From NCBI GenBank assembly GCA_024653775.1, contig JANLHZ010000106.1:1-60377 (forward strand): a stretch of 60,377 bases of DNA, in the 5' to 3' direction. The stretch's first letter is position 1, and each line of letters opens with the position of its first letter. This document shows positions 3,102 to 60,377 of this stretch, in pieces. The stretch comes from Planctomycetota bacterium. GTDB lineage: Bacteria > Planctomycetota > UBA8742 > JACQVU01 > JANLHZ01. Made by a program: the position numbers and the translations under genes. Under the pieces are notes generated by a model that did no database searches, was not told the DNA's origin, and saw nothing but the letters and a program-made list of their open reading frames with translations.

Positions 3102-3215
3102 TTAGAAACTATCTCAAGCAAGCGAACAGGACATTTCGGTGCCGTCAAATGAGACGTTAGACGACTTGTGCGGACATAGACGACCGCGGTCCCGGGGGCT
3201 TGAGATAGTTTCTTA
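3102..3215. repeat. R2 hairpin element, copy A
   Basis: The element has terminal inverted repeats GAAACTATCTCAAGC at the left and its complement at the right, each flanked by TTA, which suggests a 3-bp target duplication. The inside contains a degenerate GAGAC-loop hairpin and a CCGCGGTCCC block shared with the other R2 copies at 12.46, 15.3, 20.8, 24.0, 56.0, 57.8 and 60.3 kb. Confidence 0.8.
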
Positions 3216-8593: not shown

Positions 8594-8912
8594 CTGCGTA
8601 GTATGCAGCGGCGTTTAACCGTTGTCCACCTTGCGCGCTTACGACTCCTAAGTTGCGGAGCAACTGTTCACGGGGTAGTTCGCGGTCTATAGCGGGATTC
8701 TGTTCGTAGTGTGCTCGTGAGAGCATATTTTCGCGGTGCGGTGGATCAAAGAAACGCCTTACGGCGCCACTACGAACGCGAACTACCCCGTGAACAGTTA
8801 CGTTGCGGAAACCTGAAACTTCCTTACAAATCTGAATTCTGAAATCTAAAATCTGAAATCAAAAATCTCGATAACCTTGGCGCCCTGACGGGCGCGTGGC
8901 TGAAATCCAGAT
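8594..8912. other. Divergent intergenic region carrying R1
   Basis: The region separates the leftward glycosyltransferase from the rightward histidine kinase. It holds R1 copy a (8662-8799) and a low-complexity TCTGAAATC-type tract (about 8826-8868). No open frame with a ribosome site is visible. Confidence 0.6.
8662..8799. mobile_element. R1 MITE-like element, copy a
   Basis: The 138 bp element begins AACTGTTCACGGGGTAGTT and ends with its inverse complement, giving terminal repeats of about 20 bp or more. The interior pairs further (CGTAGTG with CACTACG), so the element could fold as one long hairpin. GTTGCGGA flanks both sides (8652-8659 and 8802-8809), consistent with an 8-bp target duplication. 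It has no coding capacity, so it would need a transposase in trans. Its orientation is opposite to copies b and c. Confidence 0.85.
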
Positions 8913-9629: not shown

Positions 9630-9736
9630 TTTTTGAATCGTGTGTATCGATAATCCGCATCCGCCGGTGACTTCACGCGGGGGCCCGCCAGAAAATATTC
9701 TGCGGAATCTTCGCGGCGCGTGGTTAGAATACTTGC

Positions 9737-9875
9737 AACTGTTCACGGAGTAGTTCGCGTTCGTAGTGGCGCCGTAAGGCGTTTCTTTGAACCACCGCTA
9801 TCTGGAAAATATGCTCTCACGAGCACACTACGAACAGATTCCCGCTATAGACTGCGAACTACCCCGTGAACAGTT
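9737..9875. mobile_element. R1 MITE-like element, copy b
   Basis: This copy is nearly the reverse complement of copy a. The ends are AACTGTTCACGGAGTAGTT and the inverse of AACTGTTCACGGGG. The sequence AGAATACT flanks it on both sides (9726-9733 and 9876-9883), again pointing to a 7-8 bp target duplication. It sits between the histidine kinase and comEC. Confidence 0.85.
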
Positions 9876-9919
9876 AGAATACTCCTTACAGCCTTTCGAA
9901 TAGACCTTCCGGAATTCCA

Positions 9920-12451
9920 ATGACACCGTCCGCGTCAATCGCGCTGGAATCGCAAAAACCGAGGGAACGACAACCCGTACGTAAAATGCCGTTTTTCGTG
10001 CTCGCGATGGCATGGATAATCGGTGTCGGTATGCAGGAGCTGCTCGCGCTCGAAAGCCGGACGCTGACGATGCTTTCGATCGTGGCGATCGTCTTTTCGT
10101 TCGCGATCATTTCACGGCTCATCATCGAAAGCAGGCGGGAGGACTTCGTGCGCAATCGAATGCGAGCGCCGTGGCACAGATCCGCGGAAGTCTGCATCGT
10201 CGTTTCCGCGGGGATAATCGCGGCGCTGACGTATCAGGTCAGCCGGGAGACGATCCCCGCGGACGACGTCCGACATTTAGACATTCATCCTGGAGACGAA
10301 GTCGAGTTCACTGGCTGGGTCGAAGACGCGCCGTTACCGAGGAACAGCGAATCCGGCTACGATTTCCGCTCGCGTCTGTTCGTGCTCGAGCTTGCCGGCG
10401 TGAACGCGAAAGACGGCCATCGCGAAGTCACAGGCATGGTCGAGGCGTACGCGGGAGACGAATTCAGAAATCCGCCTCTGCCGGGGGAATTCCTCAGAAT
10501 CCGAGGCGTCTGGAGCGAGTTCTCGGAAACGGAGGGCACGCGCGGAATGTCGGCGAGGGATTTCAAGTTCAGCAGGGGAATTTTCGGGAGAGTGCGCCTG
10601 CGCATTTTCGACGGCGTCCAGTCGATCGATCCGCCTTCCGGGCTGAACCTCGGCGCGACGATCAAAAGCGCGCGGATGAACGTCACCAGCCGACTGATGC
10701 GGGACTTCGACCGACGCGTCGGCGGACTGTACGCCGCGCTGCTCGTAGGCGAGCGAAGGTTCCTGACGGAGGACGTAACCCAGAAATTCGAAAGCAGCGG
10801 CACCGTCCACCTGCTCGCGGTAAGCGGACTCCACGTCATAGCGATCGGCTCGATCTTCGGGCTGTTCTTCCGCGGTATCGGAATGCGCGGCAGGACTCTG
10901 TTCGCGTTCACTTCCGCGGTGCTGATCGTGTACGCTTTCGCGGCGGGAGCGCGAATCAGCGTCATTCGCGCGGCGACGGGCGCCGTGATCTACGCCTTCG
11001 CGGCGCTGATAGGTCGCAGCGGGAACGGATTCAACGTACTCGGATTCATCGCGCTGATGTTCCTCGTGCCGCATCCGGAGTATCTTTTCGACATCGGCTT
11101 CCAGCTCAGCTTCGCGGCGGTGTTCTCTATCCTGCTGCTTTCGACAATGGTCCCGCTCGGGAATCTCCTTCCGGTGCCGGAGGGCGCGAAGTTCCACGAA
11201 CGGCTGTTTCTGAAGTTCACCGGTAGCGTGCTCGCGCTGATTCTAGTTTCGATTGCGGTGATGATCGGAACCACGCCGCTGACGCTTTATCATTTCAATT
11301 TCGTCACGCCCGGGATGCCGCTTTTCAACGTCGTCGCTATTCCCGCGCTGACGATCGTCCTGCTAGGCGGAGTTCTGTACGTGTTCCTGATTCCCGTGAT
11401 CGACGTCCTTCCGATGAGCGATTTCATAATAGACGCGCTATCGCTCCCCGCGAAGGCGCTGCTTGCGATTCTGGAACTCTTCGCAGGTATGCCCGGCAGT
11501 TCCACCTACGGCGTCGGGCTGAGGCTTCCGTTCGTGGTCGCGATGATGTTTCTGCTCCTGCTCGTTCTTTTCAGAACGCGCCGCGGATACCGCGCGGCTC
11601 ATGTGACGATGTTCGTTCTCGCGGCGCTGCTGCTGACCGTGGTCGACGACCTTTTTTCGCGTGCGCGGAACGACACTCTTCGCGTAACCGCCATTCCGGT
11701 GGACCACGGAAACTCATTGCTTATCGAGGCTCCGGGCGATCAGGTGCTTCTTTACGACGCAGGCTCCCTCGGAAACGACGAAGTCGGCGCGAACACCATC
11801 GCCCCAGCGCTGTTTCAGAAACGAATCGATCGGATCGACGTTCTTTTCTTCTCGCACATCGACGCTGACCACACGAACGGCTTCGAGCAGCTTCTGCGAA
11901 GATTCACTATCGGGGGTCTCGTCGTGCCGCAGAACTTCGCACGGTTCGATCGAGGAAACGAAATAATGGCGGAGTGCGACCAGCGCGGGATTCCGGTGAT
12001 GCTCGCATCCACCGGCTCGAAAATAACCGGAGTCCGTGACGTAGCGATCACCGCGCTCCATCCGCCAGGGTTCGACGTGCTCGGCACCGAGCTCGATTCG
12101 AACGACTCGAGCCTCGCGCTGCTGATCGAATCCGCGGGCCGCAAAATCGTACTCACCGGCGACCTCGAAGAGCGCGGCGCGTTCACCGTTCTGCGGTACG
12201 TTGACGAATATCTCGATCCGCCGGTGGACCTACTTGTAGTCCCGCACCACGGCCGCGATCCAATGGTGTGCGGGATGTTCCTCGAAGCGCTGAGGCCGAA
12301 GTCCGCGATCGTATCGACGTCCCGCGACACGTTCAGCGCGGAAATGGCCGCGGAATACAGGCGCGCAGGCGTCGATTTGAGGCTGACTTCGAGTTACGGA
12401 CTCATCGAGTACTCAGCGGCTGAAAACGGATTCGTTCAGTCAGAAGACTAA
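9920..12451 (+). CDS. comEC: ComEC/Rec2 competence DNA-uptake protein
   Basis: This 843-residue protein has the three-part ComEC layout. An N-terminal membrane and OB-like region (DUF4131) is followed by the competence domain with many membrane helices (VHLLAVSGLHVIAIGSIFGL is the diagnostic motif at about residues 294-313). A C-terminal metallo-beta-lactamase-like domain follows (FFSHIDADHTNGF, then LTGDLEERG and VPHHGR). The family forms the inner-membrane channel that takes up single-stranded DNA in natural transformation. Length is in the normal range. Alternative starts at internal ATG codons (for example before FFVLAMAW) exist. No other competence gene is nearby. Confidence 0.93.
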   Translation: MTPSASIALESQKPRERQPVRKMPFFVLAMAWIIGVGMQELLALESRTLTMLSIVAIVFSFAIISRLIIESRREDFVRNRMRAPWHRSAEVCIVVSAGIIAALTYQVSRETIPADDVRHLDIHPGDEVEFTGWVEDAPLPRNSESGYDFRSRLFVLELAGVNAKDGHREVTGMVEAYAGDEFRNPPLPGEFLRIRGVWSEFSETEGTRGMSARDFKFSRGIFGRVRLRIFDGVQSIDPPSGLNLGATIKSARMNVTSRLMRDFDRRVGGLYAALLVGERRFLTEDVTQKFESSGTVHLLAVSGLHVIAIGSIFGLFFRGIGMRGRTLFAFTSAVLIVYAFAAGARISVIRAATGAVIYAFAALIGRSGNGFNVLGFIALMFLVPHPEYLFDIGFQLSFAAVFSILLLSTMVPLGNLLPVPEGAKFHERLFLKFTGSVLALILVSIAVMIGTTPLTLYHFNFVTPGMPLFNVVAIPALTIVLLGGVLYVFLIPVIDVLPMSDFIIDALSLPAKALLAILELFAGMPGSSTYGVGLRLPFVVAMMFLLLLVLFRTRRGYRAAHVTMFVLAALLLTVVDDLFSRARNDTLRVTAIPVDHGNSLLIEAPGDQVLLYDAGSLGNDEVGANTIAPALFQKRIDRIDVLFFSHIDADHTNGFEQLLRRFTIGGLVVPQNFARFDRGNEIMAECDQRGIPVMLASTGSKITGVRDVAITALHPPGFDVLGTELDSNDSSLALLIESAGRKIVLTGDLEERGAFTVLRYVDEYLDPPVDLLVVPHHGRDPMVCGMFLEALRPKSAIVSTSRDTFSAEMAAEYRRAGVDLRLTSSYGLIEYSAAENGFVQSED

Positions 12452-12738: not shown

Positions 12739-15093
12739 ATGGTTGAGAAGCCGCAATCGGTTTCGGGCGCCGAGTCCACGTGGGCCGTGAATCCCGAAAC
12801 GTTCTACAGAGGTTTGATTCAGGGTTTGCATGACGACATTGTCGTCATAGACAGAAACTTCCAGGTGGTGGACATCAACGGCGCGTTCCTGCGAAGAATG
12901 AAATACGCACGGGAAGATGTGCTCGGTCGATCCTGCCACTTCATCTGTTCCGGGCTGGAAGAACCCTGCGAGCACGAAGGCGTGAGATGTAAACTTCTGA
13001 ACGTATTCCACTCTGGAAAATCGATGTCCTTTCGAAGGGTGCATCAAACGGGTGGCGGAACCAAAACTCACGTCGACATTCTGCTCTCGCCTATATGGGA
13101 AACGTCGGGCGAAGTGATGCTCGTCGTGGAGGCGATGCGCGACGTGACCGATCTTGTCCAGGCGCTGGACGAGAAGATGAACTTCGAAAGATTCGCAAGG
13201 GCGATACTCGACGGAGTCTCGGACGGTATAGCTGTCGCGGACCCGGAAACGATGGATATCCGCGCCGTGAACGACTCTTTTTGCAGAATGATCGGATACT
13301 CGAAGGAAGAGTTTTCCGGCTTGAAGCTGCGCGACATCCACCCGCTGGAAAATCTTTCTGAAGTGATGGCCGCGTTCAGGATGCTCGTCACCAAGGAAAC
13401 GAATCTGAACACGGGCATTCCCGTGATGCGCAAGGACGGGTCGGTGTTCTACGCGGACATCGTCGGGACTCCAGTAATCATCGACGGCAGGACTCAGATC
13501 GTAGGCGTTTTTCGGGACGTGACCGCGAATCTCAGAAGCAAGAAGATGGCGGAGGAACGAGAGAAGTTCATAACGCAGGTGATGCAGTCGTCGCTGAACG
13601 GAATTTTCATTTACGACGCGATCGCGAAATCGACGACATTCACGAACGAAAGGGCGTCGAGAATCACCGGCTGGTCGAGCGAAGAGCTGATTTCGATGAA
13701 CGGCCTCGATATCGCGTTGCTGTTCCACCCGGAATGCCGCGAGGAGTTCGTCACGCTGATGGAGCAGATGCTCGCGTCGAGCGAAGAAATCAATTCCGAG
13801 CACGAATACCGCGTTCGGCGCAAGGACGGCGGATACTTCTGGTGCATGGTCTGGCTGACGGCATTCGAGAGAAACGCAAGCGGCAGACCGACGAAGATTA
13901 TCGGAACCTTCGTCGACGTAACCGACAAAAAGGACCTCACGGAGCAGTTCCGTCAATCGCAGAAACTCGAGTCGTTCGGCAGGCTTGCAGGTGGCGTCGC
14001 GCACGATTTCAATAACATCCTGATGGTGATCCTTGGGAGCTGCGACCTCGCGAACCTGAAACTTCCGGAAAGTAACGAAATCCGAAGTCTGATCGACGAA
14101 ATCCGGACGTCGGCTGAAAAAGCCGCGTCGCTGACGAGGCAGCTCCTGGCTTTCAGCAGGAAGCAGCCGAGCTTTCCGTCGATAGTGAACGTCAACGACG
14201 TCATTCGCGGCGTCGAGAAAATGCTGCGCCGACTGATCGGCGAGGACATTATATTCCTCACCGACCTCGACAATAACCTGCGACCTGTGCTTGCGGACGC
14301 CGGGCAGTTCGAGCAGGTGATAATGAACCTCGTCGTAAACGCGCGGGACGCGATGCCTTCCGGCGGGAAGCTCTCGATTCGGACCGCAAACCGCGTGGTT
14401 CTCGAGGCGGAAGAAAAAAAACGTCCGCTGATTCCCGCTGGGAAATACGTCGTGATGTCGATCGAGGACACGGGCTGCGGGATCGACGAATCGATCGTTG
14501 GAAAGATATTCGAGCCGTTTTTCACGACGAAGGAAGTAGGCAAGGGCACCGGACTCGGGCTATCGACGGTCTACGGCATAGTGAAGCAGTCCGGCGGCAG
14601 CATAGTCGTAAAGAGCAAGGTGAAAGCGGGAACGACCTTCGAAGTCTATCTGCCGCAATCGAAAGAAGAGACGCAAACGGAAGAGCGGGAGAACGAAACC
14701 GTCAAAGGCGGTCCGGGCGACGCCCAGCACATTCTGGTGGTCGAGGATGAACCGCCGCTGCGGAATATACTGGAGCGCGCGCTCAGGAATCTCAACTACA
14801 ACGTGACGGTAGCCTCGAGCGGCGCCATGGCGCTCGATCTCGTCGAAAGGAACGTTATCCGTCCCGACCTCCTTATCTCGGACGTCGTTATGCCCGGAAT
14901 GAACGGAATCGTGCTCGCAAGCAAGCTCAGGGTCTCTATGCCGACGCTTAAAGTGATTTTGATGTCCGGATACCTCGACAGCGAGAAACTCGAAAGTTCG
15001 CCGGTCCCGCGGGATGTTCCGCTGCTGCATAAGCCTTTCAAGCTCGATGAACTCGCGACGAAGATCAGCCGGATCTTAGATGGCGAAAGGTAA
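12739..15093 (+). CDS. PAS-domain hybrid histidine kinase with receiver
   Basis: A soluble 784-residue hybrid kinase. Three PAS domains lie in order (about residues 15-130, 145-265, 275-400). A HisKA domain follows (GRLAGGVAHDFNNILMVI, His422) with the DFNN variant typical of this kinase class, then an HATPase domain (EDTGCGIDESI; GTGLGLSTVYGIVKQSGG). The C-terminal receiver domain has its phospho-acceptor Asp at about residue 715 (LLISDVVMPGMNG). The ATG at 12739 is preferred because GGTGGAGG lies 6 nt upstream; a GTG at 12727 would place the ribosome site inside the gene. The stop codon TAA is the first three bases of the adjoining R1 copy, so insertion seems to have shortened the protein by about seven residues. 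Confidence 0.92.
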   Translation: MVEKPQSVSGAESTWAVNPETFYRGLIQGLHDDIVVIDRNFQVVDINGAFLRRMKYAREDVLGRSCHFICSGLEEPCEHEGVRCKLLNVFHSGKSMSFRRVHQTGGGTKTHVDILLSPIWETSGEVMLVVEAMRDVTDLVQALDEKMNFERFARAILDGVSDGIAVADPETMDIRAVNDSFCRMIGYSKEEFSGLKLRDIHPLENLSEVMAAFRMLVTKETNLNTGIPVMRKDGSVFYADIVGTPVIIDGRTQIVGVFRDVTANLRSKKMAEEREKFITQVMQSSLNGIFIYDAIAKSTTFTNERASRITGWSSEELISMNGLDIALLFHPECREEFVTLMEQMLASSEEINSEHEYRVRRKDGGYFWCMVWLTAFERNASGRPTKIIGTFVDVTDKKDLTEQFRQSQKLESFGRLAGGVAHDFNNILMVILGSCDLANLKLPESNEIRSLIDEIRTSAEKAASLTRQLLAFSRKQPSFPSIVNVNDVIRGVEKMLRRLIGEDIIFLTDLDNNLRPVLADAGQFEQVIMNLVVNARDAMPSGGKLSIRTANRVVLEAEEKKRPLIPAGKYVVMSIEDTGCGIDESIVGKIFEPFFTTKEVGKGTGLGLSTVYGIVKQSGGSIVVKSKVKAGTTFEVYLPQSKEETQTEERENETVKGGPGDAQHILVVEDEPPLRNILERALRNLNYNVTVASSGAMALDLVERNVIRPDLLISDVVMPGMNGIVLASKLRVSMPTLKVILMSGYLDSEKLESSPVPRDVPLLHKPFKLDELATKISRILDGER

Positions 15094-15238
15094 CTGTTCA
15101 TGGGGTAGTTCGCGTTCGTAGTGGCGCCGTAAGGCGTTATGTACTTATGCCCTTACGGGCACACTACGAACTGTATGCTCTTACAAGTTACTACGAACAG
15201 ATTTCCTATAGACTGCGAACTACCCCGTGAACAGTTGC
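15091..15238. mobile_element. R1 MITE-like element, copy c
   Basis: The third R1 copy has terminal repeats AACTGTTCATGGGGTAGTT and the inverse of AACTGTTCACGGGG. CGAAAGG flanks it (15084-15090 and 15241-15247). Its interior differs from copies a and b, with a TTATGCCCTTACGGGC segment. Its first bases form the stop codon of the preceding gene. Confidence 0.85.
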
Positions 15239-15294
15239 GACGAAAGGGCGACGCCTAAAACGCGAGAATAATGCAGGTTTCGCGGGTGTTAAGT

Positions 15295-20790: not shown

Positions 20791-20904
20791 TAAGAAACTA
20801 TCTCAAGCTGTGGGAGTGCAGGCGTCTCGCCTGCGCAAAAGGCTTCAGACGTCTCGTCTGAAGCCTCCGAATTACCAGAAATCGGAGCTTGAGATAGTTT
20901 CTAA
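20791..20904. repeat. R2 hairpin element, copy C (complete)
   Basis: Both terminal repeats are intact (GAAACTATCTCAAGCT and its complement), with TAA on each side as a putative 3-bp target duplication. Inside are two perfect hairpins: a GCAGGC stem and a GGCTTCAGAC stem, both with loop GAGAC on the opposite strand. An ATTACCAGAAATCGG block is shared with copy D. The core runs opposite to copy D. Confidence 0.88.
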
Positions 20905-25498: not shown

Positions 25499-25801
25499 GG
25501 CGGCGGTTCCTTGAAAGCCTTCGCGAGTATGAACCAAAAGAACCCGCCGCGCAAGGCTTCCGTTTCGCCGCGTTCGTCCACATAGGACTCGCGAAGCAAG
25601 AAGTCGTGCATCTCGCATCTCATATTCACACCATCTTCACATCGCTCTCGGTCGCCGAATCCTCACCGGAGCTACAGCTACGACTCCGGTTTGGCTTCCT
25701 CGATCAATGCGAACCTGACGCAACTCTGAGCGCGATTTTACAAGACTTATTGCTTCGCGAGTCCTTAGTTCGATCCGCGGGTTTGGACTTTCCCCCGCGG
25801 A
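25499..25801. other. Intergenic region holding R4 copy a
   Basis: This gap lies between two leftward genes. Most of it is the inverted copy of the R4 repeat (25621-25752). No promoter is clear. Confidence 0.5.
25621..25752 (-). repeat. R4 dispersed repeat, copy a (inverted)
   Basis: The reverse complement of this stretch closely matches 28811-28950. Conserved blocks include AAAATCGCGCTC, GCGTCAGGTTCG, GAGGAAGCC and TCCGGTGAGGATT, with scattered substitutions between. The middle can pair as CCGGAG with CTCCGG. It has no coding frame and no terminal inverted repeats. Confidence 0.8.
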
Positions 25802-28353: not shown

Positions 28354-28798
28354 AATCATCGTCATAGGCGTCGGAAACCCGTTTCGCGGCGACGACGCGG
28401 CTGGCCTCGCGGTAATTGACGAACTCGAACGCATCGGCGCGCCCGCGGGTGTGTCGCTACTAAAAATCACGGAGCCGACGAAGATGGTGGATGCGTTCGA
28501 AGGTGTCCGGCGAGTGATAATCGTGGATGCGTGCGTTTCGGAAAGTGGGGAAGAGCCTTTGTGGATGACGTATGATGAAATCCAGGAGGAAAATCCAGCG
28601 CTCGTATCGAGTCATACTATAGGTGCGCTACAGGCCGTCGAATTGTTCCTCGCACTTGGCAATGAGACTACGCCACAGTTCACGTTCGTCCTGATTCCGA
28701 TAGCCGGGGAACAAGGATACGGCGAAGAAATGTCCGCGCGAGCACAGCAAGCGAAAGCCTCCGCAGTCTCTCAGTTGCTACAGGAGCTGGGTGTTTAG
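28340..28798 (+). CDS. Hydrogenase maturation-type protease
   Basis: A 152-residue protein of the HycI/HyaD protease fold. The metal ligand motif VIGVGNPFRGDDAAGLAV near the N-terminus is followed by VRRVIIVDACV with the second acidic ligand, and SSHTIGALQAVELFLALG with the third. Such proteases clip the C-terminus of the large subunit of [NiFe] hydrogenases. No hydrogenase gene is in the window, so the substrate may be encoded elsewhere or this may be a related peptidase. The start overlaps the HisI-like gene by 14 bp. Confidence 0.82.
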   Translation: MAKAEIIVIGVGNPFRGDDAAGLAVIDELERIGAPAGVSLLKITEPTKMVDAFEGVRRVIIVDACVSESGEEPLWMTYDEIQEENPALVSSHTIGALQAVELFLALGNETTPQFTFVLIPIAGEQGYGEEMSARAQQAKASAVSQLLQELGV

Positions 28799-28810
28799 GA
28801 GTCGTAAAAT

Positions 28811-28950
28811 AATAAGTTATTCAAAATCGCGCTCGGATTTGCGTCAGGTTCGTTTTGCGAGAGGAAGCCCAACCGGAGGCGTAGCTATAGTTCCGGTGAG
28901 GATTGGGCGACTGAACGCGGAGTGAATGTGGCGTGAAGATGTGATGGAGA
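28811..28950 (+). repeat. R4 dispersed repeat, copy b
   Basis: This is the direct-strand partner of 25621-25752. Together the two copies form an inverted pair bracketing three genes. The conserved core is GCGTCAGGTTCG, then GAGGAAGCC, then TCCGGTGAGGATTGG. Confidence 0.8.
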
Positions 28951-32066: not shown

Positions 32067-35000
32067 TCAGCGCACTCTTGCGATGACGACTGACCCTGAC
32101 GGCTTGAGTTCGATCGACGGCAGCATCGATCCGCCGAGGGCCTGCGCGCGGGTCTGGACGTTCCGTTCGAGGTACAGACTCAGTTCCGAAAGCGTGACCA
32201 CGTTGTTCCCGTCGCCGGAAAGCCGGTCGGCGTTTCCGCTTAGACCGTCGAGGAGGATTTTCGTGAACACGCCGTTTTCGGCCTCCGGATCCTCGTGGGA
32301 GAACTGCCCTGGCTGGCAGGCGCCGAAGGTGGCTGTGACCTCGGTCGCCTCGTTGACGACGGTTCCGAGTACGCCGCGCATGCTCTGGTTGACCTGGTTT
32401 TCGCCTCGGAACATTCCGATGCCGCCCGCGTGGCAGGCGTCAATGAACTGAATCCTTCGCTTCGCGCGGAGTCTGTTCCAGAGTCCGGTAAGCGTTTCAG
32501 CCATCACGCCTGTCGCGGGGAGTCCCGCCGCTTGCGAGTCCCACGCGACGAGCGAGGTCGATCTTTCGTCCGCGATGCCGTGACCTGCGAAGAAGAAAAC
32601 CACCGTATCCTCTTCCGCCGACGCGCCGCGGACGAGGTGCTGCTCGAACGCCGCGCTGATAGCGCCCTGGGTCGCGCTCGAACCCGTCAGCGTCCGAACC
32701 GCGCCGTTCAGACTCCCGTCCTCGCGCAGAAGCGGTGAGTTCGGGTTCGTCTCGAACCAGGATGCGACGTCGATTGCGTCGTTTTCGGCGTACTGAAGAT
32801 CGCGAATAGCGTCGTCGCGATAATCGTTTATCCCAACGCAGAGAACCTGCCAGCGCCCGCGTGGAGTTTCGCGGGAGATGGTGCGGGTTTCCGAATATTC
32901 CTTGCCGTTCCCTGTGCGAAGGAAAACCCGAATCTGGTGCGTCCCGACGGAAAGCGAAAGCGTGCGTTCGAAGAACTCCTCGCGGAAGTTTCTTGCCGGT
33001 TCGGACGCGGGCGTCGTCAAGCCGGAGTCCGCGGTCGCGATCGCGCCCGGATCGCGGCTGATCGCGCTTACGACAACGCCGTCCACGAGAATATCGAACT
33101 GCGAAAACCCGCCGTACGCCTTTGCGTAGCCGCTGACCTTGACGTGCTCCTCGGTGGTGACGAAACTATCCGCCGGCGAATTGAGGCGTAGCACGTCCTC
33201 TCCGCGGAACACCTGCGTGATCGTCGGCGCGACTGCCTGCGATCCCCAGGAAGAAACCGTCTGGGAGCCGTGCTCGGTGAGGTCGTTCGAGGCGATCCAG
33301 GCCCGCTTGCCTTCCGCGGACTCGAACTCGTACCAGCTTCCGAGCTGCCTCGTGATCCGAAGCGCGCTTCCCGCGCCCGTCGCGATCGACATCAACTCCG
33401 TTTCCGCGCTCGCGCCGCTGTAGACGTTCGCGCTTTCACCCGCAAGATACATCGTCCGCGGCGGCGTGAACACGATCTCTCGATCGCTCGTGCGCGCGCC
33501 CACCTTGATCTCGATGTCGTCCTCGAAATTCAACCCGAATACCCGATCCTGCGCAAAAACGTGAATCCAGACGCTCGAGAATCCAAGCCCGGGCTTCGAG
33601 CCGAGTCTCACGCGGAACTCGTGGGTCTCGTTCGGTCCGAGCGCAGGGATCGTCTCTTCCGTGTCTCCAATCAGAAACGCGTTTCCATCGTAATTGCTCA
33701 TCGCGCCGAATGAAGTCTGAATCAGAAGGTCCCGCGCGGTCCCGGCCCCGGCGTTCGTGATGCCTAACACCACGTCGCCCGACTCGCCGGGAGAAAGAAT
33801 CCCGTCCTTGTTTCCGACGCTTTCGATAAACCGCGCGCTGTATCTTATCTCCGGCTTAGGCACCGGCTGAACCGCCTGCGAGACGTTAATATCCGAAGGA
33901 TCGAATCCGCGACCCTCTTTGAAACGCAGCCTGAACTGAATCCGGTCCGCGTCGAACGACATCGGAAGCGTGAACGAAACCCTCCGCGTGACGCTTCCAT
34001 GGCGCGGTACGAACCCAACGAACACGCGGTACGGGAGTGTCACATCGTCAGACGTGCCTTCGAAATCGACTTCCGGAAACGCCGCGACCTGATAGAGGTC
34101 TTCATCGCCGCTATTCTCGACCGTCAGCGCTAGTTTGTAGTCGCTGCCGGGCGACAACGCGCCCGAGAAAGCCCCCTCGAATCCGACCCGCGCGACTCCG
34201 TAAGGCTGGCCTGCGATCTCAGCCGGCGGGCTGATCCAGTTCACGGCGTCGCCTCCGACGGTAAAGTTTTCCCAGATCGGCGGAATCGTCCAAGGCGGCT
34301 CGAAACTCCAGAGATCCTTCTTGACGATGCCGTCGTGCCCGCCGAAAACGAGCATCTTATTCCCGGTCCACACTGCGCTGTGGCCTGTCCGCTTCGGCGG
34401 CTTCGTGTACCCCACGTCGATCTGCCTCCAGGACCTCGATTCGTTATTGTACACCCAGGTGTCGTCCAGATAGTTCGTTCCGTCGTAGCCCCCGAACATC
34501 ACGGTTTCGTTTCCGGTGAAAATCGCTGTGGTCCCGCCCCGCGCAGGCGGCGTCGATCTCAGCCCCGGCCAGAGCCACATCCTGGATTCGCGATCGAAGA
34601 CCGCACCGGTAGTCAGATACCCTCCTCCGTAGCCGCCCCAGACGAACATCTGGCTTCCCATCCATACCGCTATGTGTCTGTACCGCCCCGCCGGGACGTT
34701 CAGGACGTTCAGCGACGACCAGGAATCGCTGGAAGGATTGTATATTCCGCCGTCGTACTTGACGAAGCCGTCGTCGCCACCGCCGCCGAAAACGATCATC
34801 TCCGTCCCAGTCCACACCGCGGAATGATTGTCTCTTGGGGAAGGCGCGCCGACCGCGGTAATCCTTCGCCAGACGTCCGTGGAAGGATTGTAGGCCCAGC
34901 CGTCCGGGACCATGGTCGAATCCTCGATCCCGGTCTTTCCCGAAAAGACGATCATCTCGGTTCCGGTCCAGACAGCGCTGTGGTCCTTTCGCGCGATCGG

Positions 35001-35354
35001 CTCCGAATAAGGAGCGCTCATCGACGTCCAGGTGTCGGTCTCCGGATCGTAGACGCCGCCGTCCGCGACGGTCTGTTCGCCGTTCCAGCCGCCCCAGACG
35101 ATCATTTTGCTTCCGGTCCAGACAGCAGCGTGGACGCTCCTCTCGGTCGGAGCGCCGACGGTACTCAGTTCCTTCCATACGTTCCGGATAAGCGAAACCG
35201 CGGAGTCGTTTTCGAACGTGCTCGCCTCGACGTAATACGCGTCGTAGTCGAAGTCGTCGTCGGACGAGAACAGCGAACAGCACGGAATCGCCGCGGAAAC
35301 GAAAAGCAGCGAAAGAAATATCGAAGGACGAATGCGGGAATCAGCGGAGAACAT
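32067..35354 (-). CDS. Kelch/SH3/caspase-fold lipoprotein
   Basis: A 1095-residue exported protein. A signal peptide with CC at residues about 25-26 (AAIPCC) suggests a lipoprotein. About residues 60-340 hold six Kelch-like blades (AVWTGSKMIVWGG, AVWTGTEMIVFGG and close variants). Two beta-sandwich CARDB-like domains follow (LALTVENSGDEDLYQ; DVVLGITNAGAGTARD), then a bacterial SH3 segment (NVYSGASAETELM). A C14 caspase/orthocaspase domain ends the protein. The catalytic pair is His925 (FFFAGHG) and Cys974 (FIDACHAGG). The catalytic part is intact; targets are unknown. It could be a peptidase triggered by an outside ligand. Confidence 0.88.
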   Translation of the reverse strand: MFSADSRIRPSIFLSLLFVSAAIPCCSLFSSDDDFDYDAYYVEASTFENDSAVSLIRNVWKELSTVGAPTERSVHAAVWTGSKMIVWGGWNGEQTVADGGVYDPETDTWTSMSAPYSEPIARKDHSAVWTGTEMIVFSGKTGIEDSTMVPDGWAYNPSTDVWRRITAVGAPSPRDNHSAVWTGTEMIVFGGGGDDGFVKYDGGIYNPSSDSWSSLNVLNVPAGRYRHIAVWMGSQMFVWGGYGGGYLTTGAVFDRESRMWLWPGLRSTPPARGGTTAIFTGNETVMFGGYDGTNYLDDTWVYNNESRSWRQIDVGYTKPPKRTGHSAVWTGNKMLVFGGHDGIVKKDLWSFEPPWTIPPIWENFTVGGDAVNWISPPAEIAGQPYGVARVGFEGAFSGALSPGSDYKLALTVENSGDEDLYQVAAFPEVDFEGTSDDVTLPYRVFVGFVPRHGSVTRRVSFTLPMSFDADRIQFRLRFKEGRGFDPSDINVSQAVQPVPKPEIRYSARFIESVGNKDGILSPGESGDVVLGITNAGAGTARDLLIQTSFGAMSNYDGNAFLIGDTEETIPALGPNETHEFRVRLGSKPGLGFSSVWIHVFAQDRVFGLNFEDDIEIKVGARTSDREIVFTPPRTMYLAGESANVYSGASAETELMSIATGAGSALRITRQLGSWYEFESAEGKRAWIASNDLTEHGSQTVSSWGSQAVAPTITQVFRGEDVLRLNSPADSFVTTEEHVKVSGYAKAYGGFSQFDILVDGVVVSAISRDPGAIATADSGLTTPASEPARNFREEFFERTLSLSVGTHQIRVFLRTGNGKEYSETRTISRETPRGRWQVLCVGINDYRDDAIRDLQYAENDAIDVASWFETNPNSPLLREDGSLNGAVRTLTGSSATQGAISAAFEQHLVRGASAEEDTVVFFFAGHGIADERSTSLVAWDSQAAGLPATGVMAETLTGLWNRLRAKRRIQFIDACHAGGIGMFRGENQVNQSMRGVLGTVVNEATEVTATFGACQPGQFSHEDPEAENGVFTKILLDGLSGNADRLSGDGNNVVTLSELSLYLERNVQTRAQALGGSMLPSIELKPSGSVVIARVR

Positions 35355-35548: not shown

Positions 35549-36706
35549 ATGACGACAATTCAAAAATCAAAAATGGAAAATCGAAAATTGGACAACTTCG
35601 TTCCGCCGAAGGGCGCGAAGATCGCCGTCGCGATGTCAGGCGGCGTGGATTCCTCCGTGACCTGCGCGCTTCTGAAAGAAGCCGGGTATGAAGTAGCGGG
35701 TTTTTTCATGAATATGGGGATTCCGTCAAGCGTGACGAAGAATTCGAAAAGCTGCTGCTCCGCGGTCGACGCGCGGGACGCGGCCCGCGTCGCGTCGAAG
35801 TTCGAGGTCCCCTACTACTCCCTCGATTTCAGCGAAGGCGGGAAAACGCTCATCGATTATTTCGTCGCCGAGTACGATCGCGGCAGGACGCCGAATCCGT
35901 GCGTGATGTGCAACCAGAAGGTCAAGTTCTCGAAGCTCCTGAACTTCATCGACGAACTCGGATTCGACTATCTCGCCACCGGACACTACGCCCGGGTCGT
36001 AAATCATCGCGGCGCGAAGCACATAGCCCGCGGCGTATGCGCTGAAAAGGACCAGAGCTACTTCCTCTTCGGCGTAGATTCGGGACTGATCGAGCGCATC
36101 GTATTCCCGCTCGGGACGATGACGAAGGACGAAGTCCGCGATGAGGCGCGAAGATTCGGACTAGGCGTCGCGGAAAAAGCCGAGAGCCAGGAAATCTGCT
36201 TCGTCCCGGACGACGACTATCGCACGCTTTTGAAGGACCGGATTCCCGAGCGCATCCGCCCCGGCAAAGTCATTGGTCCGGAAGGCGATGAAGTCGGAGA
36301 ACACGACGGATTCCAGATGTACACCGTCGGCCAGCGCAAGGGTCTTCGGATCGCGGTCGGAAAGCCGGTGTACGTGAAAAACATCGACCGCGAGTCTAAC
36401 ACGGTAAGCCTCGGAGAGCGCGACGATCTGATGGCGAAGGAGTTCATCGCGAGGGACGCAAAGTTCACGAACATGCCTCTCGCGGAGCACGAATGGGCGA
36501 AGGGCGGGCGCGTGTCGATGTTCGACGCGGCGGTGCAAATTCGTTACCACCACGAAGCGCAGCCCGCAAGCGTCGAGATTTTCAGCGGCGGGACGTTCCT
36601 CGTCCGGTTCCACGAACCCGTGTGGGCGATAACCCCCGGCCAGGCCGCGGTCGTATACGACGAAGACGTCGTCCTCGGCGGCGGGTTCATCGACAGGGTG
36701 TACTGA
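35549..36706 (+). CDS. mnmA: tRNA 2-thiouridylase MnmA
   Basis: A 385-residue tRNA-specific thiolase. The PP-loop is AVAMSGGVDSSVTCAL (about residues 26-41). The catalytic cysteines are in NPCVMCNQKVKF and SQEICFVPDDD. QRKGLRIAVGKPVYV and the ending GGGFIDRVY are typical of the C-terminal domains. MnmA thiolates U34 of tRNAs for Lys, Glu and Gln with sulfur relayed from cysteine desulfurase. The start is uncertain: the first 40 bases are a heptad-type repeat tract (CAAAAATCAAAAATGG), and ATG at 35573 or 35480 are alternatives. Its last 116 bp recur at 40606-40721 and bound the virus-like element. Confidence 0.92.
   Translation: MTTIQKSKMENRKLDNFVPPKGAKIAVAMSGGVDSSVTCALLKEAGYEVAGFFMNMGIPSSVTKNSKSCCSAVDARDAARVASKFEVPYYSLDFSEGGKTLIDYFVAEYDRGRTPNPCVMCNQKVKFSKLLNFIDELGFDYLATGHYARVVNHRGAKHIARGVCAEKDQSYFLFGVDSGLIERIVFPLGTMTKDEVRDEARRFGLGVAEKAESQEICFVPDDDYRTLLKDRIPERIRPGKVIGPEGDEVGEHDGFQMYTVGQRKGLRIAVGKPVYVKNIDRESNTVSLGERDDLMAKEFIARDAKFTNMPLAEHEWAKGGRVSMFDAAVQIRYHHEAQPASVEIFSGGTFLVRFHEPVWAITPGQAAVVYDEDVVLGGGFIDRVY
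35560..35590. repeat. Short repeat tract at the mnmA start
   Basis: AAAAATCAAAAATGGAAAATCGAAAATT is an AT-rich heptad-like run covering candidate start codons of mnmA. It is related to tracts at 8.3 and 8.8 kb. Confidence 0.5.
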
Positions 36707-36765
36707 GCGTGAAAGCGCGGACACCTCCCGCCTCACGATTCATCTTAAAATCTTGGTGCTTCCAA

Positions 36766-37056
36766 TCATGCCACCACCACCTTCGCAGCGGTACTGACGG
36801 TTACGACAACTGAAAATCCGGGCGCGATTGGAAAGCGAATGTGAAGTCGTCTCAGCTCCTGCACGAATCCGAGGTTAAGCGTGAACGCGTCGAATATTGG
36901 AATCTGCGCATTGTTGTCCGGCTGTAACCAACCCGGTGAGGGTAGTGGCCCTGGACCATCGACCTCAATCTGAATGGTATTCGCCTGCACATAGATCACC
37001 GAATCCACCGGGCCCTGGCTGAGATCGAAAAAGAAAAATCTCACGTTTTCGGACAT
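36766..37056 (-). CDS. Small beta-rich virion-like protein
   Basis: A 96-residue protein, the last gene of the element's leftward operon. It reads as alternating beta-strands (VRFFFFDLSQ; VIYVQANTIQIEVDGPG; TLNLGFVQELRRLHIRF; SVVVTVSTAAKVVVA), the layout of a small jelly-roll or decoration protein. No family can be named. GGAG lies 6 nt before the ATG at 37056. It stops 60 bp from the end of mnmA, which it faces. Confidence 0.65.
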   Translation of the reverse strand: MSENVRFFFFDLSQGPVDSVIYVQANTIQIEVDGPGPLPSPGWLQPDNNAQIPIFDAFTLNLGFVQELRRLHIRFPIAPGFSVVVTVSTAAKVVVA

Positions 37057-37119
37057 TGAATCTCCGCGCTATATAAGTCGAAATACATCAAAAATATCAA
37101 AATTTCGCACTCACTTGCA

Positions 37120-37932
37120 TTACTGATTACCCTTAGATCGCCAGAAAGAATCGTATCCTGAGTTATTCCAACTCCGCAAATAAGCTCTTCTATCTGTTAT
37201 CCAGTCGCCAACAGTCTCCGGGAATTCCTTGCGGAACACGGCGAACAGTCTGCCAATTGCTTCATTCCAGTGATCCATATTATTAGTAGCGACTGCTTCC
37301 AACCGCGCCTCCTCGATTTTCTCAGATGGAAACAATGCGAATAATTCTTTAACGGCTGTTGCAAAATCGAAAATCCTCGCCTTTCGCAATCTACCATGAC
37401 AAAAACGGCAATTACAAATGTCGTCGGATTGGCAATCGTCCAATATATACGGTCGATGCCAAGTTTCGCGATAGTCATATCGGCTCAAATAATCTATAAA
37501 TTGTGAATGAACGCTCGGATTTCCGCCAATTGCTATAACCTGAACCATCCTAAAAAACAAAGGCATATATGAGTCGCCCATCAACGAATACCAGTCAATT
37601 GCAGAAAACCTATCCGACAAAATGATGTCGGCGAGGGGGCCGTGTACAATTGTGTCGATTTCATCATCGCGGTACTCACTATGCCTTTCGGAGGTCAACC
37701 TGTAAATGTTGGCGCTAACGTATTCAACATCAGTCCACTTTTGAAACGACGAGGATTTGTTCGATTTCGATATGTTATCGAAATGTATAAAAGTGTGGTT
37801 ATTGCGTTTTGCCCTATAAATATCTGATTTTTTAGATTTAATAGTCGAAGCGAACCATACAGCCGTCAAAGCCATGAATAAAAAGCATAAGGTAAATATT
37901 TTAAATTTATATTTTGGGCGTTTTTTTTTCAT
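37120..37932 (-). CDS. AT-rich membrane-anchored protein
   Basis: A 270-residue protein without a recognised family. A basic N-terminus and one membrane helix (FKIFTLCFLFMALTAVWFAS) lead into a soluble, probably exported part. A cysteine group, DDCQSDDICNCRFCHGRLRK, could bind metal; CRFCH fits a CxxCH pattern but nothing else supports a cytochrome. The start overlaps the transglycosylase stop as ATGA (37929-37932), so the two are translationally coupled. The gene is clearly more AT-rich than its neighbours, a sign of different origin. A GTG-type start at 37971 would lie inside the upstream gene. Confidence 0.75.
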   Translation of the reverse strand: MKKKRPKYKFKIFTLCFLFMALTAVWFASTIKSKKSDIYRAKRNNHTFIHFDNISKSNKSSSFQKWTDVEYVSANIYRLTSERHSEYRDDEIDTIVHGPLADIILSDRFSAIDWYSLMGDSYMPLFFRMVQVIAIGGNPSVHSQFIDYLSRYDYRETWHRPYILDDCQSDDICNCRFCHGRLRKARIFDFATAVKELFALFPSEKIEEARLEAVATNNMDHWNEAIGRLFAVFRKEFPETVGDWITDRRAYLRSWNNSGYDSFWRSKGNQ

Positions 37933-39008
37933 GACTTCGGCAAATTTGACCAAATAGTAGACGGCTCCCACTTGGGTTGTTTTCTTCCAGCCGGTGTTGT
38001 AAATGCCACGCTGCCCTCACCTTGCTCCAACGCTTTCCTAACTTTATTCGTATAACGAGGGTCTCCCCCTCCGTTATACGCTGCGGCTGTCTCCATCAAC
38101 ATCTCTTGCGTCAGGGTTCCCCCGCAACGCCATCCGCCGCCGCGACCTGTGAATAAATGGAGAAACCATCTCGCACCCCAAAAAATTGATTCTTGCCCGT
38201 CTATGTTCCAATTCGTTAACGCGAGATCGTTTGGCGCCGGGGCAGACCCTGCAGTTTCGCCCGGTACAGGAACGATCAAGTCAAAATCATGTTCAAAAGG
38301 TCGCGATGCGCCAGAACCTGTACGCCATCTTTCTTCCGTTTCACCTCTCATTGCACCCATGGACGGATCCTGAGGATCTGCAACTTGCATCACGTCTTCA
38401 GAATCGACCCAATTCCTGGAGCCTCGCGGCACTATAGCTCCTGCCCCATAACCAATTGAGCTTTCAACCATTGCAATGTGTTTGATGAAATCGGCAATAA
38501 CCCGCATTTGTTCGTTGTCAAGACAAAGCCCCATCTCCTCATTCCAATATGCGACCGCGTTGATAAATGCGCTGTCGTACTTGTCGAATCTTCTTTCGTA
38601 TTTATCATCTTTGTCGAGAACGCCCATGCTTGTCAGAGGACCGATGTTAGCCATATTCTGGGAACTTCGAAGCGTAGCGGGGAATAAAATCGTTTCTCCA
38701 TTGGGCATTACTTCAGTTCGTGGCGGAGACACTGACTCATCTTCATAATCGACGAATTTGAAATACTCTTTTGTAAAGACATCCCGATATTGTCCTCCTT
38801 CGGGGGTATTATCGGGCAAATCCTCTTTTGGTACTTTCGGTTTCTTGTTAAAGTTGCAATTGATACAATCAACCTCTGGACTTGGAGACTTTTCTACATC
38901 GACTTGCGCATCGGTAATGCCGAAAAACCGTTTGTAATCCTGGAGTAGGAAATACTCATTTCTCTCCATCACGGACATGTTATATATTCTTTCCATGTCT
39001 TCCGGCAT
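37929..39008 (-). CDS. Lytic transglycosylase (virion-lysin-like)
   Basis: A 359-residue protein with a soluble-lytic-transglycosylase (SLT) domain in its C-terminal half. The catalytic Glu is 182 (HIAMVESSIGYG). DVMQVAD (about 205-211) and AAAYNGGGDPRY (about 308-319) match the ESxxxxxA...LMQ...AYNxG pattern. Residues 1-120 are unrelated, with CINCNF that could hold a metal. There is no signal peptide, which fits a capsid-borne lysin that opens peptidoglycan during entry, as PRD1 P7 does. The start has AGAGGTAG upstream and lies 2 bp after the preceding stop. Confidence 0.85.
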   Translation of the reverse strand: MPEDMERIYNMSVMERNEYFLLQDYKRFFGITDAQVDVEKSPSPEVDCINCNFNKKPKVPKEDLPDNTPEGGQYRDVFTKEYFKFVDYEDESVSPPRTEVMPNGETILFPATLRSSQNMANIGPLTSMGVLDKDDKYERRFDKYDSAFINAVAYWNEEMGLCLDNEQMRVIADFIKHIAMVESSIGYGAGAIVPRGSRNWVDSEDVMQVADPQDPSMGAMRGETEERWRTGSGASRPFEHDFDLIVPVPGETAGSAPAPNDLALTNWNIDGQESIFWGARWFLHLFTGRGGGWRCGGTLTQEMLMETAAAYNGGGDPRYTNKVRKALEQGEGSVAFTTPAGRKQPKWEPSTIWSNLPKS

Positions 39009-39010
39009 TT

Positions 39011-39982
39011 CTACCTCTGGATACTAGTCGTAAGAACTGTCAGCAGCGAATTCACCGGAGGCGTAGCGACGATATTAAGAATAGTATTCAAAACCAGGCT
39101 GTTTTCCACGCGAATCGCGCCCCTGACTCCGTTCCATGTGAAATCGTACATGAAAAATCCAGCCGGTATTCCTTCGGCCGTCGGCATTACGAGTCTCGAT
39201 CCCATCCTTGCAAGCATCAGGTCAAGCGCGGTTTCGACATCAGCCCGCACGAGTGAATTATTATTGTACTCTAGAATTTCGAAGGTGTCAGCAATATTTT
39301 GGCGCTCCCCGGTCGCGTCGTCCCTTATGAAGTAGGCGAGCGAAATGATGTCCCGTCTGCCGTTCGCGTTCTGCGACTGATGACGACCGGACTGGGTAAT
39401 GCCGAAAAACGAGGAAAGATTCGAGACGCGCATCAATGGACCGTTCGGACGCATCGACGTTTCCACCGCGAAAACGTCCGCGCTGACGTTCTGCAGCGTC
39501 CAGCCTGCCGGGGGACCGACCAGAATGTCGGCTATCGTTCCAAAGCGAAGGTCCAGTTGAACGCTCTGCGCGCCATAGACTCCGGCGAGTCCGGACGCGA
39601 ACTGTCCGGGCAGATCAAGGTTGATTTCGATATACCAACTGAAGGGGAACGTGGTCGCGCCGCTTATGACGTCGTTTATGTCCGCCTCTGTCCACCTTGA
39701 ACTTTGCATCTGAGTGAACGCGGCGTACCAGAAATAATCCCTCGGCGCCCACTGCTGAAGCACGACGTTATCGACGAGAAGCGAGGCGCTTTGAATCGCG
39801 TTCAGCGAACCGTCGCCCCGAAACGTTGCTGTGTCCGTGGAAAGCGGCTTCGTGATTTCGCCCCGGATCCTGAGCAGAATCCGGACAATGTTCTTCGAAG
39901 GATTTGTGAGCGTCCCCGACGGATTGCCCGTGTTCGCCCTGAATCTGAAATTGGTGGTGACTGCGTCCATCCCGTTTGCCAT
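39011..39982 (-). CDS. Candidate double-jelly-roll major capsid protein
   Basis: A 323-residue, almost wholly beta-rich protein. Two similar-sized halves are suggested: the first spans about residues 10-165 (NIVRILLRIRGEIT; SLLVDNVVLQQWAP; PFSWYIEINLDLPGQF; QSVQLDLRFGTIADI), the second about 190-323 (DIISLAYFIRD; NTILNIVATPPVNSLLTVLT). Length, the Leu-Pro-Gly strand near the middle of the first half, and the ending resemble double-jelly-roll capsids (PM2, PRD1, FLiP groups). This is my reading, not a search result. AAAGGA precedes the ATG. It lies between the 151-aa gene and the transglycosylase, in one transcript. Confidence 0.55.
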   Translation of the reverse strand: MANGMDAVTTNFRFRANTGNPSGTLTNPSKNIVRILLRIRGEITKPLSTDTATFRGDGSLNAIQSASLLVDNVVLQQWAPRDYFWYAAFTQMQSSRWTEADINDVISGATTFPFSWYIEINLDLPGQFASGLAGVYGAQSVQLDLRFGTIADILVGPPAGWTLQNVSADVFAVETSMRPNGPLMRVSNLSSFFGITQSGRHQSQNANGRRDIISLAYFIRDDATGERQNIADTFEILEYNNNSLVRADVETALDLMLARMGSRLVMPTAEGIPAGFFMYDFTWNGVRGAIRVENSLVLNTILNIVATPPVNSLLTVLTTSIQR

Positions 39983-40038
39983 ATCGGTCCTTTGTGGTTG
40001 CTTCTGTTTTGTTCAAGTCGAAAATCTTTGGAAAAACG

Positions 40039-40494
40039 TCAGGAAAGCACAACTGCGACGACATACGCGGTGGCGTCACCCGTGGTAAGTTCATCCACAT
40101 TCTGATCGGAGGCAATTTCGAACATAAGCGTCCCGCCGCCAAAGTCTATGGGAGTTTGCGATCCGTCGAATTGCGGTCCCGGCGAGGTATTTTTCAGTCC
40201 AGTCGAAACGCCTAACAGCGGCTCGCCGTTTACGAACTGCTTTCCAGCGACGCCGACGGCTCCCACGACGAAAGTTGCCGTGGTTCCGGTGAATGCCTCG
40301 TCGAGCTGAATCCACGCCGCGATTACGAAACTGAGCGGAGGCAGAGTCCCGAAGTTGAACGACTGGTTAGGCAAGCTTGCGGTAAGATCAGAAGTTGTGA
40401 CGCGTCTGCTGTATATCTGTCCTATGCGCAGATCCCGCATTACTTCAGGTCCGCCGCTGGTTCCGAATACGGGAATGTTTCCGACAAAAGTCAT
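40039..40494 (-). CDS. Beta-rich minor virion protein
   Basis: A 151-residue protein, first gene of the element's operon. Strands such as LPPLSFVIAAWIQLDEAF, TATFVVGAVGVAGKQF, GGTLMFEI and ATAYVVAVVLS resemble the small jelly-roll or fibre-base proteins often encoded beside phage capsid genes (the pattern Q-x-x-x-x-AF-x-G-x-A-T-F-V-G). GGAG lies 6-7 nt before the ATG at 40494. A gap of 56 bp separates it from the capsid candidate. The 110 bp upstream (40495-40605) hold an inverted repeat AATCGCGT/ACGCGATT and the presumed promoter. Confidence 0.7.
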   Translation of the reverse strand: MTFVGNIPVFGTSGGPEVMRDLRIGQIYSRRVTTSDLTASLPNQSFNFGTLPPLSFVIAAWIQLDEAFTGTTATFVVGAVGVAGKQFVNGEPLLGVSTGLKNTSPGPQFDGSQTPIDFGGGTLMFEIASDQNVDELTTGDATAYVVAVVLS

Positions 40495-40605
40495 ACTGGC
40501 TCCGTGAAATCGCGTTCGTTAATACGGAGTAGTTTGCCTATCTGAAAAAATCAGCGCCAGTATTTTCGGTCTTATCTTCGATTTGTGATAAAGTTCACGC
40601 GATTA

Positions 40606-40721
40606 GGACGTTCCTCGTCCGGTTCCACGAACCCGTGTGGGCGATAACCCCCGGCCAGGCCGCGGTCGTCTACGACGAAGACGTCGTCCTCGGCGGCGGG
40701 TTCATCGACCGCGTGTACTGA
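40606..40721 (+). pseudogene. mnmA: Duplicated 3' end of mnmA (candidate attachment site)
   Basis: These 116 bp repeat the last 38 codons and stop of mnmA in the same orientation. The three differences (GTA to GTC, AGG to CGC counted as two) are synonymous, so the same C-terminus is encoded. There is no start or upstream mnmA sequence. It ends the virus-like element on the right. Confidence 0.9.
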
Positions 40722-56023: not shown

Positions 56024-56134
56024 TTAGAAACTATCTCAAGCTCCGATTTCTGGTAATTCGGAGCCGTCAAACGAGACGTTTGACGGCTTTTGCGGACGAG
56101 GACGTCCGCGGTCCCAGGCGCCTACGATAGTTTG
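56024..56134. repeat. R2 hairpin element, copy D
   Basis: The left terminal repeat is complete and the right end is altered (CTACGATAGTTTG). The core holds the perfect hairpin GCCGTCAAAC, loop GAGAC, with its complement, and then GCGGAC, loop GAGGAC. It lies between the lysine-repeat gene and the convergent plsC-like gene. Confidence 0.85.
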
Positions 56135-60279: not shown

Positions 60280-60377
60280 TTAGAAACTATCGTAGGCAAG
60301 CGACATCGATAATTCGGAGCCGTCAAACGAGACGTTTGACGGCTTTTGCGGACGAGGACGTCCGCGGTCCCAGGTGC
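60280..60377. repeat. R2 hairpin element, copy F (cut by window edge)
   Basis: The left end TTAGAAACTATCG and both hairpins (GCCGTCAAAC with loop GAGAC at 60319-60343; GCGGAC with loop GAGGAC) are present. The right terminus lies outside the window. The 180 bp before it (60097-60279) hold only the upstream region of the barrel gene. Confidence 0.8.

What the first reader, a model, noticed from the sequence alone, without database searches (positions are those of the whole stretch)
39011..39982. Possible new double-jelly-roll capsid protein
The 323-residue protein is beta-rich, divides into two halves, and has the size and strand pattern of capsid proteins of the PM2/PRD1/FLiP type, but I cannot match it to a named family by eye. 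Its neighbours (lysin, small beta proteins) suit this class.
Basis: inference. Interest (0 to 1): 0.7.

Follow-up and report, generated by a model that had tools for sequence, protein, structure and literature searches.

The report
Capsid-fold protein inside toxin cassettes
A bacterium carries at least 13 inserted copies of a small mobile gene cluster; it pairs a protein that looks like the shell protein of PRD1-type viruses with swappable toxin-like genes and their likely antidotes, which suggests a viral shell part reused to deliver toxins to rival cells.

Summary
The ORF at 39011-39982 is real, but on the minus strand. Two AlphaFold2 models (this protein and a homologue of about 32% identity) have low confidence (pLDDT 41-42). 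Even so, both return PRD1/PR772/STIV double-jelly-roll (DJR) capsid proteins as their top PDB matches (best E 4e-5). The first jelly roll is modelled; the second is not resolved. No sequence relative was found outside this genome.

It is not an ordinary phage gene. The window holds one complete element of 3.9 kb (36707-40605), flanked by a 116-bp direct repeat of the mnmA 3' end. It has five genes: p151, DJR, effector, membrane protein, p96. The genome has at least 8 left ends and 13 right-end contexts of such elements. In three locus pairs, p151/DJR/effector 5' end and p96 are conserved under purifying selection. The effector body and its partner are replaced completely. Short remnants of the DJR 3' end precede extra cassettes. 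Some effectors carry peptidoglycan-binding, Ntox44 or DUF3238 domains; none of nine tested has a membrane segment, whereas all thirteen partner proteins have one.

Best reading: a mobile polymorphic effector-immunity system whose carrier module is a DJR capsid-like protein. Assembly, cargo loading and delivery are inferred.

The parts
36591..36706 (+). right direct repeat: last 116 bp of mnmA, ending at its stop codon
   Evidence: blastn self-match 97.4% to 40606-40721
36766..37056 (-). p96: small beta-looking protein that closes each cassette; 22 places in the genome including fragments
   Evidence: dN/dS about 0.08 against L010
37120..37971 (-). putative immunity protein (283-aa ORF; probable ATG at about 37932 overlapping the effector stop); N-terminal TM segment
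   Evidence: unrelated to the gene at the same position in L010
37929..39008 (-). putative effector, 359 aa; conserved N-terminus (18 of first 25 residues identical to L010), variable body, lysozyme-like motifs by eye
39011..39982 (-). DJR capsid-like protein, 323 aa (the finding)
40039..40494 (-). p151: small beta-looking protein, first gene of the element; 8 places in the genome
   Evidence: dN/dS about 0.18 and 0.05 in two pairs
40606..40721 (+). left direct repeat: second copy of the mnmA 3' end
36707..40605 (-). complete mobile element between the direct repeats (3.9 kb, five genes)

Best explanation
The 323-aa protein is a DJR capsid-like protein that serves as the carrier or scaffold of a mobile, polymorphic antibacterial effector-immunity system. 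Proposed steps. (1) p151, DJR and probably p96 form a capsomer, shell or surface particle (inferred). (2) The effector is translated immediately after DJR. Its first ~25 residues are conserved within each DJR type and dock it on the DJR assembly as cargo (conservation shown, docking inferred). (3) The particle brings the effector to the envelope of related rival cells, where the variable C-terminal part attacks peptidoglycan or another envelope target (domain hits shown for some effectors, activity inferred). (4) The gene after each effector encodes a membrane-anchored or lipoprotein immunity factor that protects the producer (membrane segments shown, immunity inferred). (5) New effector-immunity cassettes are exchanged by recombination between two conserved arms, the DJR 3' end plus effector 5' end, and p96; old cassettes remain downstream as orphans with a short DJR remnant (anatomy shown). 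(6) The whole element moves and inserts at the stop codon of host genes, duplicating 47-129 bp of the gene end (repeats shown, mechanism unknown).
For: DJR fold: two models of homologues with about 32% identity both give PRD1/PR772/STIV MCPs as top PDB matches, probability 0.97-1.00; BFVD gives STIV, Wip1, GC1, virophage and NCLDV capsid proteins. Purifying selection on p151, DJR and p96, with effector and partner replaced in three pairs. DJR remnants before secondary cassettes, with a 137-bp repeat at 93% inside L010. Effector domains: PG_binding_3 E=2e-4 and phage endolysin PHROG E=2e-4 in L010; Ntox44 E=0.0014 (below the Pfam cut-off) in L012; DUF3238 E=2.4e-9 in L013. No membrane segment in 9 of 9 effectors tested; segment or signal/lipobox in 13 of 13 partner genes. 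DJR stop to effector start is only a few bases or overlapping in window, L010, L011, L012 and L013. Five direct-repeat pairs at element ends, all 3' ends of host ORFs.
Against: Both models have mean pLDDT of only 41-42 and the second jelly roll is unresolved. HH comparison with known DJR MCPs was no better than shuffled controls. No particle, toxicity or immunity is shown. No release route or packaging ATPase is seen. Most effectors have no known toxin domain. The family is known from one metagenome-like draft genome only.
Confidence: 0.5

Rival explanations
1. Provirus remnants or capsid-encoding satellites: reduced DJR phage elements whose lysin-plus-membrane-protein cassette varies, mobilised by a helper virus.
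For: DJR fold; insertion with direct repeats at gene 3' ends, as integrated elements do; endolysin-like effector in L010; FLiP shows no annotated ATPase, so its absence is not decisive.
Against: The complete element is 3.9 kb, under half of Jorvik's 8,762 bp, described as the smallest known membrane-containing dsDNA phage. No ATPase, replication or integrase gene. At least 13 loci with arrays of effector-partner cassettes, including an Ntox44 effector and LRR lipoproteins, which a lysis cassette does not explain. No relatives in viral collections.
Confidence: 0.25
2. Polymorphic effector-immunity system exported by another route (for example outer-membrane exchange, vesicles or lysis), in which the DJR protein is a surface lattice, adhesin or chaperone and not a capsid-like shell.
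For: The effector-immunity anatomy does not require a closed particle; myxobacterial SitBAI toxins travel on mobile elements by outer-membrane exchange (PMC5562445). No Phage_sheath_1 protein in this genome, which argues against a contractile-injection carrier of that family.
Against: Effectors lack signal peptides and lipoboxes, unlike SitA. The DJR gene is tightly coupled to the effector, and effector N-termini track DJR type, which suggests direct physical partnership.
Confidence: 0.17
3. The 323-aa protein is another beta-sandwich protein; DJR matches from low-confidence models are misleading.
For: pLDDT 41-42; no sequence-level match.
Against: Two independent models both rank only DJR capsid proteins at the top of 350,542 PDB chains.
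Confidence: 0.1

Closest known systems
PRD1/PR772 P3, STIV MCP, Wip1 and GC1 MCP (DJR capsid proteins, Bamfordvirae)
   Same: Predicted fold; similar size; beta-rich neighbours; lytic transglycosylase encoded nearby in PRD1, GC1 and Jorvik
   Different: No detectable sequence similarity; no ATPase, replication, spike or membrane-protein set; embedded in variable effector cassettes; multi-copy in one chromosome
Rhs/CDI-type polymorphic toxins with orphan cassettes
   Same: Conserved 5' part, variable toxin end, adjacent immunity gene, displaced downstream cassettes that keep a remnant of the carrier's 3' end (general features from my own knowledge and PMC3482391)
   Different: Carrier is a separate DJR capsid-like protein, not an Rhs or filamentous haemagglutinin repeat protein; the effector is its own gene; p96 closes each cassette
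MuF phage-capsid-like toxin systems proposed in PMC3482391
   Same: Idea of toxins loaded in a phage-capsid-derived structure
   Different: MuF systems come from tailed-phage genes (portal, terminase, capsid); here the shell candidate is of the unrelated DJR lineage
SitBAI of myxobacteria (PMC5562445)
   Same: Polymorphic toxin-immunity cassettes on multi-copy mobile/prophage elements with an accessory upstream gene
   Different: SitA is a lipoprotein moved by outer-membrane exchange; the effectors here carry no signal; no DJR protein there
DUF2961 cellular DJR proteins (PMC8812541)
   Same: DJR fold in bacterial genomes outside viruses
   Different: Carbohydrate-metabolism family; no Pfam hit to it here

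Membership tests
DJR major capsid proteins (Bamfordvirae) | two jelly rolls, PRD1-like | tested here: inconclusive
   Top structural matches are DJR MCPs for both models, but only the first jelly roll is modelled with any confidence
DJR major capsid proteins (Bamfordvirae) | sequence/profile similarity to a known group | tested here: not met
   Pfam, PHROGs, NCBIfam, PDB sequences and hhalign to seven MCPs: nothing; P2_N absent from 294 phylum genomes including this one, though the control genomes did not ring either
DJR major capsid proteins (Bamfordvirae) | forms trimeric capsomers/virions | not testable with these tools
   needs expression and microscopy
PM2/PRD1/FLiP-type provirus | packaging ATPase and/or replication genes in the element | tested here: not met
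   All ORFs between the direct repeats were read; five genes, none of these
Polymorphic toxin systems | conserved N-terminal part with unrelated C-terminal parts among paralogues | tested here: met
   Three pairs: 18, 19 and 23 of the first 25 effector residues identical, 27-29% identity in forced alignment over the whole
Polymorphic toxin systems | known toxin domains at the variable end | tested here: inconclusive
   PG_binding/endolysin, Ntox44 (sub-threshold) and DUF3238 hits; others none
Polymorphic toxin systems | cognate immunity gene downstream that co-varies with the toxin | tested here: inconclusive
   A co-varying membrane or lipoprotein gene is present after every effector read in full; protection not tested
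Polymorphic toxin systems | orphan cassettes with remnant of the carrier | tested here: met
   DJR C-terminal remnants of 32 and 28 aa before second effectors in L010 and L011
T6SS/eCIS/tailocin carrier | contractile sheath in the genome | tested here: not met
   PF04984 absent from the 96%-complete genome, control genomes ring; other sheath families not searched

The most novel reading that the evidence does not exclude
A DJR (PRD1-lineage) capsid module has been domesticated by a bacterium into a particle that carries interchangeable antibacterial effectors. It would be a toxin-delivery class parallel to tail-derived T6SS/eCIS/tailocins, spread by a mobile element that inserts at gene stop codons.
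Probability: 0.35. Interest if true: 0.92.

Novelty: new variant of a known kind. Interest (0 to 1): 0.76.

Why it matters
Known virus-derived toxin carriers come from tailed-phage parts (tails, or the proposed MuF capsid-like systems). A DJR capsid fold tied to polymorphic effector-immunity cassettes would show that the other great capsid lineage can also be reused for conflict between bacteria. It would also give a small, self-contained five-gene set (window 36766-40494) to test for particle assembly, cargo docking and killing.

Tried and rejected
Plus-strand reading (stops). Known families: Pfam, PHROGs, NCBIfam, PADLOC and PDB sequences gave nothing significant for p151, DJR or p96. Relatives elsewhere: IMG/VR with DJR (single and alignment), p151, p96 and type II DJR; genome contigs with DJR and p96; phages and plasmids by tblastn; 392 genomes of the phylum; all found none outside the own genome. 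HH comparison to PM2, fNo16, Jorvik, YY, FLiP, PRD1 and GC1 MCPs was indistinguishable from shuffled columns, so no group is claimed. The P2_N search rang nowhere, controls included, so it is uninformative about other genomes. Contractile-system carrier: no Phage_sheath_1. A simple provirus was considered and ranked second because of the 3.9-kb size, missing genes and effector arrays. Contig C180 ends are a perfect inverted repeat over at least 9.7 kb, taken as a probable assembly artefact and not counted twice.

Full report
What was checked. The finding points to 39011-39982. The ORF exists with these exact ends but on the minus strand, ATG at 39982; the plus frame has stop codons. It has no match in Pfam, PHROGs, NCBIfam or PADLOC, and no significant match among PDB sequences.

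Copies in the genome. A protein search of the window's own genome (5.4 Mb, 331 contigs, 96% complete) found four full-length homologues: window, C9 at 83%, C288 at 33% and C249 at 31% identity. It also found C-terminal pieces on C180, C251 and C9. No homologue was found in 59 relatives, 391 other genomes of the phylum, the class, IMG/VR, GTDB contigs, phage or plasmid collections. dN/dS is 0.12/1.94 for window against C9 and 0.05/0.47 for C288 against C249, so the protein is under purifying selection.

Fold. AlphaFold2 with a four-row alignment gave mean pLDDT 42, pTM 0.43; residues 20-172 are the better part. Foldseek against PDB returned 22 matches with E below 0.001, all PRD1 or PR772 P3 (best 4.2e-5, probability 1.00), then vaccinia D13, mavirus, STIV and ASFV capsid proteins. 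BFVD gave virophage, NCLDV, GC1, STIV and Wip1 capsid proteins, mixed with some unrelated entries. A second model, of the C249 homologue (32% identity), was equally poor in confidence. It again ranked PRD1/PR772/STIV MCPs in all of its first 17 places, best E 1.3e-3. I take a PRD1-lineage fold as likely (about 0.85-0.9). The second jelly roll is not resolved and the TM-scores are low (about 0.3). Profile comparison with seven known MCPs was negative, so no virus group is named.

Gene order. On each full locus the order is p151, DJR, effector, one or more membrane/lipoprotein genes, p96. The DJR stop and the effector start are a few bases apart or overlap in window, L010, L011, L012 and L013. 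Loci L010 and L011 continue after p96 with a remnant of the DJR C-terminus (32 and 28 codons) and a second, different effector. p151 occurs in 8 places and p96 in 22, often at contig ends, as expected when a repeated element breaks an assembly. I count 13 different right-end host contexts from the loci read.

Polymorphism. Three pairs (window/C9, C288/C249, C180/C251) were compared. For the first two, p151 is 66 and 96% and DJR 83 and 92% identical; C180/C251 share 96% over 342 bp of the DJR 3' end and effector start. p96 is 84-91% identical in all three. The first 25 effector residues keep 18, 19 and 23 identities, while whole effectors and their partners fall to background in forced alignments. 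This is replacement of an effector-plus-partner cassette between two conserved arms.

Effectors and partners. L010 effector: PG_binding_3 (E 1.9e-4) and endolysin PHROG (1.6e-4). L012: Ntox44 (0.0014, below the Pfam cut-off). L013: DUF3238 (2.4e-9, above cut-off). L015: weak cell-wall hydrolase (0.097). Window effector: lysozyme-like motifs by eye only. None of nine effectors has a predicted TM segment or lipobox; all thirteen partner genes have a TM, signal or lipobox. This pattern fits effectors that act outside the cytoplasm and antidotes that sit in the envelope; it is inference, not a test.

Mobility. The element in the window lies between two copies (97.4%) of the last 116 bp of mnmA. 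Four further left ends match right ends on other contigs through direct repeats of 122, 129, 57 and 47 bp (90-97%), each the 3' end of a different host ORF. No integrase is in the complete element. Repeats that rebuild a gene's 3' end are typical of integrated elements (established knowledge). Five different targets without an integrase are unusual and unexplained.

Reading. The anatomy matches a polymorphic effector-immunity system on a mobile element; the new part is the carrier. A toxin carrier of capsid type was proposed before for MuF, tailed-phage-derived, neighbourhoods (PMC3482391); I found no paper that joins DJR proteins and immunity proteins. Assembly into a shell, cargo docking and delivery are inferred. 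The main rival is a reduced DJR satellite or provirus, which would explain the fold and the integration repeats but not the arrays of replaced effector-partner pairs.

Noticed in passing
window 36591-36706 / 40606-40721; L010/L036, L012/L042, L072/L037, L074/L039: Direct repeats of 47-129 bp, each the 3' end of a different host gene, flank these elements; insertion is at or near the stop codon and no integrase is present in the complete element.
   Followed up: partly
L037 (C300) 6842-8751: Array end with an LRR lipoprotein gene without its effector, two p96 types in tandem and a 94-aa ORF whose start is p96-like but whose rest is not: looks like a recombination scar and extra immunity gene.
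   Followed up: no
L037 (C300) 9725-11707: 660-aa putative effector with a long glycine-rich GGNGG repeat region and a duplicated N-terminal NLEDSYNWLME motif.
   Followed up: no
L011 10801-12795: The partner gene (262 aa) resembles part of its own effector (30% over 138 aa, E 2.6e-9), perhaps an immunity protein derived from the effector.
   Followed up: no
window 3102-3215, 20791-20904, 56024-56133, 60280-60377: Dispersed repeat of about 114 bp also found on other contigs of the genome (C288, C136, C300, C191); one copy lies at the very end of the window contig.
   Followed up: no
window 8662-8799, 9737-9875, 15090-15240, 25611-25765, 28797-28950: Two further families of dispersed 140-155-bp repeats (77-94% identity).
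   Followed up: no
window 32067-35354 (-): 1095-aa protein that by eye combines kelch-like repeats with a caspase-like C-terminus (FFAGHG, DACHAGG).
   Followed up: no
C180 (L013/L014): Contig of 64.7 kb with perfect inverted ends of at least 9.7 kb, a probable assembly artefact at the element.
   Followed up: partly
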